DNA from: Myxococcaceae bacterium
GTDB lineage: Bacteria; Myxococcota; Myxococcia; Myxococcales; Myxococcaceae
NCBI GenBank assembly: GCA_016793095.1
Contig: JAEUJQ010000052.1
Coordinates: 62,001 to 126,000 of the forward strand
DNA: 64,000 nt
Direction of reading: 5' to 3'
Part shown: in pieces, positions 53,073-57,848 of the stretch
Position numbering within the stretch: the stretch's first letter is position 1
How the letters are laid out: each line of letters begins with the position of its first letter
Notes under the pieces: model-generated
Database searches by the model: none
Told to the model about the DNA's origin: nothing
Seen by the model: the letters and a program-made list of their open reading frames with translations, nothing else
Translations under genes and position numbers: made by a program

Positions 53073-53933
53073 TCAGCCGAGGCGCCGCTTCAACAGCAGC
53101 TCGAGCCGGGCACGCACTGCGGGGCTGATCGCCTTCGGGTCGGTGAAGACCGCGTCATCGAGCGCGGTCTGGCAGTAGCACGGCGTGCCGACCAGCTTCG
53201 CGACCTGCGGCAGCGCGGCGCGCACCAGCTTCATCGCGGCCGCGGTCGCCTTCGCCATGTTGTTGCGGATCTCCTGGAGCAGCGCCTCGCGCCCGCCATC
53301 GTGGGGCCGCCAGCAGTCGTAGTCGGTCGGGAGGCTCACGGCCGCGTAACAGAGCTCGGCTTCACGCGCGAGCTTCGCCTCGGGCAGCGCCGTCATGCCG
53401 ATCAGATCCGCCCCCCAGGAGCGATGCAGATCGCTCTCGGCGCGGGTCGAGAACGCGGGGCCCTCCATCACGACGTAGGTGCCGCGCGGGTGCACCGTCA
53501 CGCCGGCGCTCGCGGCTGAGGCCTTGAAGACGGTGCGCATCGACTCGCAGAACGGGTGCGAGAACTCCACGTGCACGGCCAGCTCGTCGAAGTACGTGCC
53601 CACGCGGCGGTGGGTGCGATCGATCAGCTGATCGGGGATCACCAGCTCGCCGGGGTGCACCTCTTCGCGCAAGCTGCCCACCGCCGTCGTCGCGATGACG
53701 TGGGTGACGCCGAGCTTCTTGAGCGCCCAGAGGTTCGCCCGGTAGTTCACGGCCGACGGTGGCGTCGTGTGGCCAACGCCGTGGCGCGGCAACAGCGCCA
53801 CCTCCACGCCCTCGACGCTGGTCACCGCGATGGGCGCCGAGGGCAGGCCGTACGGCGTCTCGACCGTGGTGGTGGTGCCGCCGAGCGCGCCGAGCGCCTG
53901 CCCGAGTGAGGTGCCGCCGATGATGCCGATCAT
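53073..53933 (-). CDS. mtnP: 5'-methylthioadenosine phosphorylase
   Basis: A 286-residue MTAP-type nucleoside phosphorylase. It begins MIGIIGGTSLG, has LLPRHGVGHTTPPSAVNYRA, VVMEGPAFSTRAESD and the adenine-selective SLPTDYDCWRP, which separates it from guanosine/inosine enzymes. It splits methylthioadenosine (or 5'-deoxyadenosine) with phosphate to adenine and the ribose-1-phosphate. GGGGAG precedes the ATG by about six bases. It lies 12 bases after apt, which recycles the adenine product. Confidence 0.94.
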   Translation of the reverse strand: MIGIIGGTSLGQALGALGGTTTTVETPYGLPSAPIAVTSVEGVEVALLPRHGVGHTTPPSAVNYRANLWALKKLGVTHVIATTAVGSLREEVHPGELVIPDQLIDRTHRRVGTYFDELAVHVEFSHPFCESMRTVFKASAASAGVTVHPRGTYVVMEGPAFSTRAESDLHRSWGADLIGMTALPEAKLAREAELCYAAVSLPTDYDCWRPHDGGREALLQEIRNNMAKATAAAMKLVRAALPQVAKLVGTPCYCQTALDDAVFTDPKAISPAVRARLELLLKRRLG

Positions 53934-53945
53934 GTGTGTCTCCCC

Positions 53946-54467
53946 TCAGTAGCGGAGCAGCGCCTCGACGCGCCCCTCGAGCTTCTTGCGCCCCTCGAGC
54001 GCCGCCAGCTCGACCGCGAAGGCCGAGCCGAGCACCTTCGCGCCGCAGTCGTGAATGAGGTGCGCCGAGGCCGCCGCCGTGCCCCCGGTGGCGAGCAGAT
54101 CGTCCACGATCACCACCTTGTCGTTCGGCCCCACCGTGTTCGCGTGCATCTCGAGCACGCCCTCGCCGTACTCGAGCGCGTAGGAGCGGGCGATCGTCTT
54201 GTGCGGCAGCTTGCCGGCCTTGCGGATGAGCGAGATGCCGCACCTCAACGCCAACGCCATCGGCGCGCCGAAGAGGAAGCCGCGGGACTCCACCGCCGCG
54301 ATGCGCGTGACGCCCGAGTCTCGCCACGGCCCCACCATCGCCTCCACCAGGTCGGCGAACAGCGCCGGGTCCTCGAGCACCGGCGTGAGATCGCGGAAGA
54401 GAATGCCTGGCTTCGGAAAGTCCTGAACGTCGCGGATGCGGGCCTTCAGGCGATTGATGACGGTCAT
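53946..54467 (-). CDS. apt: Adenine phosphoribosyltransferase
   Basis: A 173-residue type I PRTase. It has RDVQDFPKPGILFRDLTP at the N-terminus, AAVESRGFLFGAPMAL, RKAGKLPHKTI, and the PRPP loop VVIVDDLLATGGTAAA. It converts adenine plus PRPP to AMP. GGAGG precedes the ATG. It is first in an apt-mtnP pair, so adenine released by MtnP is salvaged at once. The 62-base gap to the divergent aldolase should hold a bidirectional promoter region; no clear boxes are visible. Confidence 0.97.
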   Translation of the reverse strand: MTVINRLKARIRDVQDFPKPGILFRDLTPVLEDPALFADLVEAMVGPWRDSGVTRIAAVESRGFLFGAPMALALRCGISLIRKAGKLPHKTIARSYALEYGEGVLEMHANTVGPNDKVVIVDDLLATGGTAAASAHLIHDCGAKVLGSAFAVELAALEGRKKLEGRVEALLRY

Positions 54468-54529
54468 GCGGCCTCCGGAAACGCTGCGAAGGCGCGCACT
54501 GTAGCCCGCCCGCGCTCAGATGGTGGGCT

Positions 54530-55234
54530 ATGAAGCCGCGCATGTCGTGTGAGGGGTGCAAGAACAGGCTCGACGGCTCGTGCGCCGGGCTCGGAGGCTG
54601 CCGCGGCCAGCAGGACGAGCCGCTGCGCGTCGAGATCGTGCAGGCGTGCCGGCTGCTCTACGAGCGCGGCTTGATCGCGGGCTTCGACGGCAACTCCTCG
54701 GTGCGCACGGGGCGCGGGACCGTCCTGGTGACGCCCGCCGGGGTGCACAAGGGCCTCATGAACCCGCGCGACGTCGTGGAGCTCGACGAGGCGCGCGGCA
54801 CGGCCATCGACGGCCGCCAGCCCACCAGCGAGATCAGCATGCACCTCGCCGTGCTCCGTCGCCGGAAGGACATCGCCGCCGTCGTCCACTCCCACGCGCC
54901 GACGGCCGTGGCCCTGTCACTGTTGCGCAACGTCTCCATCAACGGCGTGCTCCCCGAGCTCGCCATCGCGCTGGGCGAGGTGAAGACGGTCCCTTACGCG
55001 CGGCCCGGCACCGACGCGCTCGCCGAGCGGGTGGCGGACGGGCTCGAGCGCGCCAACGCGGTGATCATCGAGAAGCACGGCACGGTCGCCGTCGGGGGCA
55101 GCGTGTCCGAGGCGCTCGCCCGCACCGAGATGGTCGAGCACGCCGCGCGCGTCATCTGGACGGCCCACCAGGTCCAGCGGCCCCAGCGGCTCGACGAGGC
55201 CGAGCTGCGCGTGTTGATGAGGCGCGCCCCCTGA
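54530..55234 (+). CDS. Class II (FucA-like) aldolase with Cys-rich extension
   Basis: A 234-residue zinc aldolase. Likely metal ligands Glu 101, His 120, His 122 and His 183 keep exactly the spacing of fuculose-1-phosphate aldolase (73, 92, 94, 155) with an offset of 28. That offset equals an extra N-terminal segment holding Cys 7, 10, 18 and 24 (CEGCKNRLDGSC then GGC). Context next to mtnA, opposite mtnP, suggests cleavage of 5-methylthioribulose- or 5-deoxyribulose-1-phosphate to dihydroxyacetone phosphate and an aldehyde. MtnB dehydratase is the alternative in this superfamily, but no other methionine-salvage gene is present. Confidence 0.85.
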   Translation: MKPRMSCEGCKNRLDGSCAGLGGCRGQQDEPLRVEIVQACRLLYERGLIAGFDGNSSVRTGRGTVLVTPAGVHKGLMNPRDVVELDEARGTAIDGRQPTSEISMHLAVLRRRKDIAAVVHSHAPTAVALSLLRNVSINGVLPELAIALGEVKTVPYARPGTDALAERVADGLERANAVIIEKHGTVAVGGSVSEALARTEMVEHAARVIWTAHQVQRPQRLDEAELRVLMRRAP

Positions 55235-55244
55235 GGAGACCGCG

Positions 55245-56246
<1,002 letters not shown>

Positions 56247-57560
56247 TCAGACCCAGGTGTCGGGGATGAGGCTCGGCTTCAGCTCGGCGAAGTCGCGCAG
56301 CATCGGCGCCAGCTTCGTGGCCGCGTCTCCGGCGTTCGGGGTGCCGGCGAGCTTCGCCTCGAACTCACGGATCGACGCGAGCGCCTGGGCCCGCGTCATC
56401 GTCTTGAAGTTCGGCGGCGCCATGCCGAGGGCCTGGTAGCCAGCCGCCGCCTTCTGCCCGTGGACCTCCTGGAACTTCGAGGAGACCGGCCCGTAGAAGA
56501 TGAGGCGGATCGTCTGATCGCGCTGGTGCTCGAGCCCCTTGCGCTCGTCGGCCGAGATGCCCGGGTGCTGGATGAGGCGCTGGGTGGCGTTGTAGTAGTC
56601 GCGCACCGGGCCTCGTTGGGTGTCGGGAATCGGCGCGCCTTCCCAGGCGTCCTTGAAGCCCTGCTCGAGGTTGGCGCGACGCTGCTTCAGCTCGTCCACC
56701 GACGCCTTCGGCTTGCCGTCGTCGAAGCCGCGCGTCTTCGTCCACACGGTGACGTTCTCGCCCTTGCGCATGCCCTGGAAGAGCTCACGCTTGATGCCCT
56801 CACTCGTACCACGGGTCGCCTGCTCCCACGCCTTCTGGTGGGCCGTCGCGCCTGAGGCCGCGCCCGGTGACGAGCCGTCGTAGGCGACGATCGTCTTCGC
56901 GTTGGGGAACATCCCCGTGTACTTCTCCATCATGTTCTCGCCGCCCGAGTAGCAGCCGGCGATCAGCAGATCTTCGACGGTCTTCGCGCCCCGCGGCATC
57001 GCCTCGGCCAGCGCACCGACCGTGGGCCAGTCGAGCCGGCCGTTGTTCTCGCCGTAGACGCCGGAGCCCACGTGGTGACCCGAGAGCACGAGCCGCGACG
57101 GCGCCTGGCCACCCTTCTCGGCCACCGCCCACTGCTGGGCGAGCTGCGCCAGCTCGTCACGGGAGTCGGAGCCCGCGTTCACCAGCACGTCGGCGATCTT
57201 CTTCGTCTGCTCGGCGGGCAGGCCCAGGGTGAGCGCGAACGACATCGCGCCGTCCTGCGAGGCCAGATCGTGCGTCTTCAGCGCGCCGCTCGCGTCGCGG
57301 GTCGTGATCTGATCGTCCTTCTTCGCGTCCTGGATGACGGTGACGTTCGTGCCCCGGGCCTTGAGCGCGTCGGACTCGAGCGTCGAACGGTGCGCGTCGG
57401 AGTTGTTCATCGCGACGAAGAGCACCTTGTCGTTCGACTTCGGGGCCCAGCCGGTGTTCGCCGGAGTGGTGGGCGTCGAGGGGGCCTGGGGCGTCGTGGG
57501 CCGGTTCGGCGTGGTGGTGGGGACGACGGGCGCAGGGTTCCGGTTGACGCGATCGGGCAT
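56247..57560 (-). CDS. Caspase-like (clan CD) protein
   Basis: A 437-residue protein. Residues 1-42 are a Pro/Thr-rich tail. Residues about 43-240 look like a caspase-hemoglobinase fold: a first strand KVLFVAMNN, the His of LVLSGHHVGSG (162-163) and the Cys of DLLIAGCYSGG (203), the His-Cys order of clan CD peptidases. The C-terminal 190 residues are helical and unassigned. No signal peptide. GGAGG precedes the ATG at 57560, with a plausible promoter (TTGTCC, 17 bases, GATACA) in the 57561-57848 gap. That gap contains nothing else I recognise. Its stop abuts the mtnA stop. Confidence 0.65.
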   Translation of the reverse strand: MPDRVNRNPAPVVPTTTPNRPTTPQAPSTPTTPANTGWAPKSNDKVLFVAMNNSDAHRSTLESDALKARGTNVTVIQDAKKDDQITTRDASGALKTHDLASQDGAMSFALTLGLPAEQTKKIADVLVNAGSDSRDELAQLAQQWAVAEKGGQAPSRLVLSGHHVGSGVYGENNGRLDWPTVGALAEAMPRGAKTVEDLLIAGCYSGGENMMEKYTGMFPNAKTIVAYDGSSPGAASGATAHQKAWEQATRGTSEGIKRELFQGMRKGENVTVWTKTRGFDDGKPKASVDELKQRRANLEQGFKDAWEGAPIPDTQRGPVRDYYNATQRLIQHPGISADERKGLEHQRDQTIRLIFYGPVSSKFQEVHGQKAAAGYQALGMAPPNFKTMTRAQALASIREFEAKLAGTPNAGDAATKLAPMLRDFAELKPSLIPDTWV

Positions 57561-57848
57561 GGGGCCTCCAGCACTGGTTGGGTGTATCACCTGGAAAAAA
57601 TCTCAGGACAAGTTCGTCTCGCACGAACAATGCCCGAAGCATGAACGGCCGGCCACCGACCAGAGAGAGCACTCGCCTGGTTGGCGATGAGTCCAATGGA
57701 CCTCGAACGTGCGACGAGAGGCCTCGCCGCTTGCCGAAGGCCGCGAGCCTGGCTGCGAACGCTCCCTGCACCACTGAGCCGAGCTTCGCGGCGGCCCCTC
57801 TTCGGGGGAGAGCCGGTGAGGCTCCCGAGCCCAGGCGACCAGTCGGCT

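What the first reader, a model, noticed from the sequence alone, without database searches (positions are those of the whole stretch)
56247..57560. Caspase-like (clan CD) protein with a His-Cys pair
A core with SGHHVGSG and IAGCYSGG has the catalytic order of caspases, gingipains and related enzymes. The N-terminal Pro/Thr tail and lack of signal peptide resemble effectors or self-acting proteases. A helical C-terminal half could be a partner-binding or inhibitory part. Clan CD proteases in bacteria often act in immunity or programmed death.
Basis: inference. Interest (0 to 1): 0.5.

Follow-up and report, generated by a model that had tools for sequence, protein, structure and literature searches.

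The report
New caspase-like protease family in myxobacteria
This gene makes an unclassified caspase-like enzyme, probably a protein cutter, found in some myxobacteria; many relatives carry a cell-wall-binding tag, so it may work outside the cell rather than as a suicide switch inside it.

Summary
In detail: a 437-aa protein is encoded on the MINUS strand at 56247-57560. His162 and Cys203 are invariant in 32 of 32 full-length relatives; His163 is not. A domain-only AlphaFold model (pLDDT 75.6, pTM 0.79) has the caspase strand order, with His and Cys directly after strands. The 17 best PDB rows of VIA-align are all caspase-like (SAVED-CHAT Z 11.2, Tce1 9.5, C11 9.5, caspase-6 8.8). The family profile matches C14 better than 60 of 60 shuffled copies. 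Yet Pfam, NCBIfam, PADLOC, PHROGs and PDB sequences give no usable match: an unnamed clan CD family, found here only in Myxococcota, where nearly all searching was done. The Pro/Thr tail lies where 11 of 32 relatives, including a paralog in the same genome, carry a LysM domain. That LysM variant also heads one second family. The helical C-terminal half is confirmed and ends P-x-x-W-[VIL] in 32 of 32. No defence match, conserved partner, or T6SS sheath gene in its genus was found. Best reading: a stand-alone cysteine protease exported without a classical signal peptide, acting at cell walls, perhaps in predation. Fold and dyad are well supported; export, target and role are inferred.

The parts
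56247..57560 (-). coding sequence of the caspase-like protein, 437 aa plus stop
   Evidence: GC3 0.93; dN/dS against relatives
57565..57569 (-). GGAGG, ribosome-binding-like site before the ATG
   Evidence: sequence; GGAGG also within 16 bases of the start in L003, L004, L005
57444..57560 (-). N-terminal MPDRV start and Pro/Thr-rich tail, residues 1-39, no signal peptide; lies where relatives carry a LysM domain
56736..57443 (-). caspase-like (clan CD fold) catalytic domain, about residues 40-275
   Evidence: AlphaFold model m76b3f99d8535; Foldseek and VIA-align; hhalign with shuffles
57075..57077 (-). codon of His162, predicted catalytic histidine
   Evidence: invariant in 32 of 32; directly after a predicted strand
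56952..56954 (-). codon of Cys203, predicted nucleophile
   Evidence: invariant in 32 of 32; directly after a predicted strand
56250..56693 (-). helical C-terminal domain, about residues 290-437
   Evidence: helices 288-425; block pLDDT 82-97 for residues 291-430; found without the catalytic domain in L060
56250..56264 (-). C-terminal PDTWV, the family's P-x-x-W-[VIL] end
   Evidence: 32 of 32 rows, at most one further residue after it; Pro and Trp invariant

Best explanation
Shown or well supported: this is a member of an unnamed family of clan CD cysteine peptidases. It has a caspase-like domain with the dyad His162-Cys203, followed by a conserved helical domain ending in P-x-x-W-hydrophobic, encoded as a stand-alone gene in Myxococcota. 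Inferred from established clan CD chemistry (recalled): His162 activates Cys203, which attacks a peptide bond through an acyl-enzyme intermediate; the residue preferred before the cut is unknown (the position two before Cys is Ala or Ser, not acidic). Inferred from domain context: the protein is exported without a classical signal peptide and works at or beyond the cell wall. Eleven relatives carry an N-terminal LysM module (wall-binding by recalled knowledge); the window protein keeps a similar start and linker but not the LysM. A predatory or antagonistic protease is the most likely use. The helical C-terminal domain and its invariant tail probably control activity or bind a partner. Rough odds: clan CD fold with working dyad 0.9; acts outside the cytoplasm 0.55; predation or antagonism effector 0.4.
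For: His and Cys invariant in 32 of 32; SGH and a later Cys also in a distant 1243-aa protein (L061). Domain model pLDDT 75.6, pTM 0.79, His and Cys directly after strands. VIA-align ranks 1-17 are all caspase-like or clan CD (assignment recalled); the first unrelated row is rank 18, Z 7.8. Foldseek best: C11 iotapain, E 4.2e-5. Profile match to C14: score 37.8, reached by 0 of 60 column shuffles, His and Cys aligned to the GH and DAC of the C14 rows; the known pair C14-CHAT scores 34.6. LysM before the domain in 11 of 32, including the own-genome paralog. Tail-only rows lie among LysM rows in the unrooted tree. In 39 genomes this LysM variant gives 14 matches at E <= 4e-23 before a gap to 2e-16: 7 caspase-like (rows of the query alignment itself) and 7 of one other family. 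In 2 of the 13 loci printed an adjacent same-strand gene encodes another enzyme-like protein without a signal peptide, by eye.
Against: Export is not shown. LysM is absent from 21 of 32 members; 11 of these start about 5 residues or fewer before the domain, with neither LysM nor signal peptide. LysM domains also occur in cytoplasmic proteins (recalled). No immunity or secretion gene is conserved next to it. The family is patchy (full-length in 27 of 195 genomes) and absent from all 16 genomes of genus g6, G075-G090. Model limits: low-confidence stretches beside the active site (128-136, 194-198), five models from 49.8 to 75.6 pLDDT, full-length model poor there; Foldseek's best hit has TM 0.45 and rmsd 8.5 over 282 columns; Z 7 to 8 is common for models without a clear match (note). 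Profile comparison with CHAT, C25 and C11 gave no signal. No activity has been measured.
Confidence: 0.5

Rival explanations
1. An intracellular regulated protease of immunity or programmed cell death, as caspase homologs and CHAT proteases are in bacteria.
For: Fold nearest to SAVED-CHAT, Z 11.2; no signal peptide in the window protein; 11 of 32 members are just the catalytic and helical domains; C14 proteins are common here (20 of 21 genomes searched, 7 in the own genome).
Against: No PADLOC match, no other Pfam domain, no conserved partner gene in the 34 loci compared, LysM fused in 11 of 32, no phage or plasmid match.
Confidence: 0.2
2. A housekeeping or developmental protease that trims the bacterium's own envelope or spore-coat proteins, held on its own peptidoglycan by LysM in some relatives.
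For: LysM fusions; mostly within one bacterial family, two full-length copies in 5 of 27 genomes; dN well below dS against close relatives; no conserved neighbour such as an immunity gene.
Against: Patchy: full-length copies in 27 of 195 genomes of the phylum; the second LysM-leader family and two neighbouring enzymes look like a set of released enzymes.
Confidence: 0.22
3. Cargo of a type VI secretion system, like the structurally similar Tce1 of Pseudomonas aeruginosa.
For: VIA-align Z 9.5 over 149 of 178 residues of Tce1; Tce1 and Tce2 are putative His-Cys proteases bound to Hcp3 (PMC13323088, passages).
Against: No VipB sheath gene in the own genome or the 6 other genomes of its genus; 9 of 30 family-holding genomes have one.
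Confidence: 0.04
4. A clan CD enzyme that is not mainly a protease: a transpeptidase or self-processing factor that uses its own conserved C-terminal P-x-x-W tail.
For: The C-terminal end is P-x-x-W-[VIL] in 32 of 32; some clan CD enzymes join or self-cut peptides (recalled).
Against: No direct evidence; the tail could equally be structural.
Confidence: 0.08

Closest known systems
SAVED-CHAT protease (8tl0), CHAT peptidases (Pfam PF12770)
   Same: Predicted fold, His then Cys after strands, small residue two before Cys; best VIA row, Z 11.2, rmsd 3.3, 162 residues
   Different: No PF12770 match, no profile similarity to local CHAT domains (score reached by 12 of 60 shuffles), no other Pfam domain
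Peptidase C14 (caspases, metacaspases, orthocaspases; PF00656)
   Same: Profile similarity above all 60 shuffles with the dyad aligned; caspase-6 Z 8.8
   Different: No PF00656 match at E <= 10; the residue two before Cys is Ala or Ser in 32 of 32
Peptidase C11 (iotapain, clostripain; PF03415)
   Same: Best Foldseek matches, E 4.2e-5 and 8.3e-5; Z 9.5
   Different: No PF03415 match, no profile similarity (3 of 60 shuffles reach the score), no acidic residue two before Cys
Tce1 of Pseudomonas aeruginosa (T6SS putative cysteine protease; 9qpe)
   Same: Fold, Z 9.5 over 149 of 178 residues; His-Cys dyad (PMC13323088, passages)
   Different: Own genus has no T6SS sheath gene; no sequence match in the PDB searches
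Gingipains, Peptidase C25 (PF01364)
   Same: Caspase-like fold, gingipain K Z 7.2, no higher than unrelated rows
   Different: No PF01364 match, no clear profile similarity (2 of 60 shuffles reach the score), no signal peptide

Membership tests
Clan CD cysteine peptidases | Caspase-like fold of alternating strands and helices | tested here: met
   Model pLDDT 75.6, pTM 0.79; 17 of the 17 best VIA rows are caspase-like or clan CD. Prediction, not experiment
Clan CD cysteine peptidases | Catalytic His before Cys, each at the end of a core strand, conserved | tested here: met
   His162 and Cys203 invariant in 32 of 32; strands 118-123 and 159-164 of the model end directly before them
Clan CD cysteine peptidases | Cysteine-dependent proteolysis | not testable with these tools
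   needs purified protein and a C203A control
Peptidase C14 (PF00656) | Match to the family model | tested here: not met
   no PF00656 match at E <= 10; remote profile similarity only
CHAT (PF12770) | Match to the family model | tested here: not met
   none at E <= 10; hhalign no better than shuffles
Peptidase C11 (PF03415) | Match to the family model | tested here: not met
   none at E <= 10; hhalign score reached by 3 of 60 shuffles
Peptidase C25 (PF01364) | Match to the family model | tested here: not met
   none at E <= 10; hhalign score reached by 2 of 60 shuffles
Peptidase C11 and metacaspases | Acidic residue two positions before the catalytic Cys (recalled from the literature) | tested here: not met
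   Ala or Ser in 32 of 32
T6SS cargo effectors such as Tce1 | Host has a type VI secretion system | tested here: not met
   no PF05943 match in G000 or the 6 other genomes of its genus
LysM-carrying enzymes | LysM domain in the window protein itself | tested here: not met
   no Pfam match in P0001; LysM is present in paralog P0002 and in 10 other rows (two of these checked by Pfam)
Known anti-phage defence proteins | Match to a PADLOC model | tested here: not met
   0 families at E <= 1 for the window protein

The most novel reading that the evidence does not exclude
The MP-x-R-[IV]-like start, Pro/Thr linker and LysM variant form an export leader for a modular set of signal-peptide-less enzymes in myxobacteria. 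The new caspase-like protease and the second, Cys/His-conserved family are two of its cargoes, delivered to prey by a still unassigned route such as the needleless T3SS with Tad-like Kil pili. That would supply candidate predation effectors, which the passages I read (PMC12075869) mention only as potential ones.
Probability: 0.18. Interest if true: 0.75.

Novelty: new variant of a known kind. Interest (0 to 1): 0.42.

Why it matters
It adds an unclassified family to the caspase-like peptidases, with a LysM module at the N-terminus of many members instead of a sensor or death domain. If the enzyme is exported, caspase-like catalysis in bacteria would reach beyond immunity and death to cell walls or prey. 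The shared leader gives a concrete handle on which enzymes myxobacteria may deliver; the Kil and T3SS* paper speaks only of potential effectors in the passages I read (PMC12075869).

Tried and rejected
T6SS effector reading: suggested by the Tce1 structure match, rejected for this genus because no VipB sheath gene is present.

T3SS test with FHIPEP: 162 of 195 genomes carry it, including 29 of the 30 family-holding ones (G012 is not in the match list). The model also covers flagellar FlhA (recalled), so it separates nothing and only fails to exclude a T3SS-like route.

Defence reading: no PADLOC hit, no conserved partner.

MPDR[IV] as a genome-wide export tag: 4 exact DNA matches in 8.8 Mb, one Arg codon type searched. 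Two are the window gene and its paralog, one starts an unrelated protein, one a 55-codon frame. So the five-residue start alone is no general tag.

Mobile spread: no match among 72,556 plasmid and 50,697 phage records; in viral contigs 138 stretches matched a pattern and none was confirmed.

Full-length AlphaFold model: catalytic part unreliable; its Foldseek list had nothing at E <= 0.001 and its best VIA rows were helical C-terminal matches. Replaced by the domain model.

Folds not listed by VIA-align are not excluded.

Profile comparisons with CHAT, C25 and C11 gave no clear signal above shuffles.

Promoter and terminator scan: 0 sites of either kind.

Viral structure library: four hits at E <= 0.001 (two clostripain-like proteins of giant viruses, one uncharacterised phage protein, one unnamed); not pursued.

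My start-codon picker chose wrong starts by eye in several rows (L006, L041, L054, L058, L061, L066); there I judged N-termini by eye.

Literature: searches listed no paper that, by title or abstract start, describes this family. Only passages of PMC13323088, PMC12075869, PMC7159879 and PMC3501461 were read. This does not show that it is absent from print.

Full report
OBSERVATION. The finding names 56247-57560. The gene lies on the minus strand: ATG at 57560, stop at 56247-56249, 437 residues. GGAGG precedes the ATG. SGHHVGSG (160-167) and IAGCYSGG (200-207) are present. The gene abuts the convergent gene to its left, which by eye is a methylthioribose-1-phosphate isomerase (mtnA) in a methionine-salvage block. 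dN is well below dS against close relatives (0.103 and 0.549 for L003), with most differences at third positions. Against the 55% paralog the values are 0.402 and 0.534, too diverged for a good estimate.

NO NAMED FAMILY. Pfam and NCBIfam give 0 families at E <= 10. PADLOC gives 0 at E <= 1. PHROGs gives one hit at E 0.32. Sequence searches of the PDB give nothing usable, with the protein (best E 2.2) or with a 32-row profile (best E 0.63).

THE FAMILY. Searches of 195 Myxococcota genomes found matches in 35 by single sequence at E <= 0.01, some of them weak and short, and in 30 by profile. Of those 30, 27 hold the 32 full-length copies, five genomes having two. The other three hold a C-terminal domain without catalytic domain (G110, running off a contig end), a distant 1243-aa protein (G192) and a frame-broken remnant (G112). 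The own genome has the window gene and a paralog on contig C27 at 55% identity. No plasmid, phage or viral-contig relative was found. The one genome-contig scan returned 8 loci, all titled as myxobacterial MAGs. It reaches close relatives only, so relatives in other phyla are not excluded.

DYAD. In the 32-row alignment His162 and Cys203 are invariant; column 163 is His, Asn, Ser or Gly. Other invariant residues include an NG between the two, and Y, PG, G, H, W and TR after strand 5 (alignment columns 188, 193-194, 198, 202, 206, 210-211). The C-terminal end is P-x-x-W-[VIL], with at most one further residue, in 32 of 32. The distant G192 protein keeps SGH and a later Cys.

FOLD. The full-length model (9-sequence alignment) had mean pLDDT 65.9 and was unreliable around the active site, while residues 291-430 of the helical C-terminal half were at 82-97. 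The domain alone (residues 39-290) gave pLDDT 75.6 and pTM 0.79; its five models ranged from 49.8 to 75.6. The strand-helix order is caspase-like, with His162 after the strand at 118-123 and Cys203 after the strand at 159-164 of the model. Foldseek's two best PDB hits are C11 iotapain, E 4.2e-5 and 8.3e-5, but with TM 0.45 and rmsd 8.5 over 282 columns. VIA-align's first 17 rows are all caspase-like or clan CD: SAVED-CHAT Z 11.2 (rmsd 3.3, 162 residues), Tce1 9.5 (149 of 178), iotapain 9.5, then caspases and C11. The first unrelated row is rank 18 at Z 7.8. The tool warns that best Z of 7 to 8 is common without kinship, so the weight lies on the top rows.

PROFILE COMPARISON. I took C14, CHAT, C25 and C11 domains from related genomes (25, 19, 7 and 13 sequences used, other matches of those calls left out) and compared profiles by hhalign. 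Against C14 the score was 37.8, reached by 0 of 60 column-shuffled copies; His and Cys align to the GH and DAC of the C14 rows. Against CHAT, C25 and C11, 12, 2 and 3 of 60 shuffles reached the observed score. For scale, the known pair C14-CHAT scores 34.6. So kinship within clan CD is supported by sequence and by predicted fold, but membership in each named family tested is not met.

N-TERMINUS. Eleven of 32 rows carry a LysM domain between start and catalytic domain; three of these, including the own-genome paralog, were checked against Pfam, the others by eye and in alignment A4. Seven, the window included, have a Pro/Thr tail. Two have an EF-hand-like region (below the Pfam cut-off in L052, no match in L054). 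One is other. Eleven start about 5 residues or fewer before the domain. In the unrooted tree LysM needs 5 changes, at least 4 of them forced, and tail-only rows lie among LysM rows. By eye the PTTPQAP-type linker before GWAP is shared between LysM and tail-only rows. The tail is therefore most simply the linker left after loss of LysM. In rows with a clear start no hydrophobic leader was seen (and by eye where its start pick was wrong). One row, L054, has an unsure start and a stretch that looks like a signal peptide by eye.

A SHARED LEADER. A profile of this LysM variant, run on 39 genomes of the bacterial family, gives 14 matches at E <= 4e-23 and then a gap to 2e-16. Seven are caspase-like proteins, which were in the profile or are the same genes, so they match by construction. 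The other seven belong to one further family of about 380 aa: no Pfam match but LysM (one member scanned), one invariant Cys and several invariant His in the alignment, and one member that also starts MPDRI. In L007 the gene upstream on the same strand encodes an HExxH protein starting MSSPRIGS with a sub-threshold M91 'effector' match. In L043 the gene downstream encodes PG_binding_1 repeats and a C39-like peptidase. These two are single observations among the 13 loci printed.

CONTEXT. In the 34 loci compared, recurrent neighbours are local synteny of related genomes or common protein types (a group of signalling proteins, kinases by eye, in 10 loci at varying places), not a conserved partner. 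T6SS sheath genes occur in 76 of 195 genomes, but in none of the 7 of the window's genus and in 9 of the 30 family-holding genomes. FHIPEP occurs in 162 of 195, three matches in the own genome, and does not discriminate.

READING. The protein is most likely a working clan CD cysteine protease. Domain context favours action at or outside the wall, by an unknown export route. Predation is a plausible use; effectors of the Kil/T3SS* machines are spoken of as potential in the passages I read (PMC12075869). That step is inference. Results against it: LysM is absent from 21 of 32 members, the family is patchy and missing from all 16 genomes of genus g6, and nothing shows secretion.

Noticed in passing
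L203:6014-7165 (own genome contig C11); relatives L174, L175, L176, L177, L201, L202: Second, unnamed family of about 380 aa with the same LysM leader, one invariant Cys and several invariant His, and no Pfam match besides LysM domains in the one member scanned; a likely second enzyme of the same set.
   Followed up: partly
L007:4336-5640: Gene directly upstream of the caspase-like gene, same strand: HExxH protein starting MSSPRIGS, no signal peptide by eye, FliG_M match just over the cut-off and weak Peptidase_M91 'effector' match.
   Followed up: partly
L043:9220-10761: Gene directly downstream of a family member: PG_binding_1 (two stretches) plus a C39-like peptidase, no signal peptide by eye.
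   Followed up: partly
L061:7502-11230: 1243-aa protein with a remote caspase-like core keeping His and Cys and, by eye, a peptidoglycan-binding-like stretch before it; Pfam finds nothing at E <= 0.1.
   Followed up: partly
L060:8528-9188: C-terminal helical domain of the family without the catalytic domain, in a frame that runs off the end of a contig.
   Followed up: partly
L062:7944-8105: Frame-broken remnant of a family member in G112.
   Followed up: no
L054:7540-9366: Family member whose frame holds a stretch like a Sec signal peptide, by eye, before an EF-hand-like region; start codon unsure.
   Followed up: no
window 53073-56246: Methionine-salvage-like block by eye (methylthioadenosine phosphorylase, apt, class II aldolase, mtnA), also near the gene in L003; the caspase-like gene abuts mtnA end to end.
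   Followed up: no
own genome G000 and its genus: No T6SS sheath gene (VipB) match in any of 7 genomes of the genus, while genomes listed for genera such as g3, g6, g8 and g20 of the same bacterial family have one or more.
   Followed up: no
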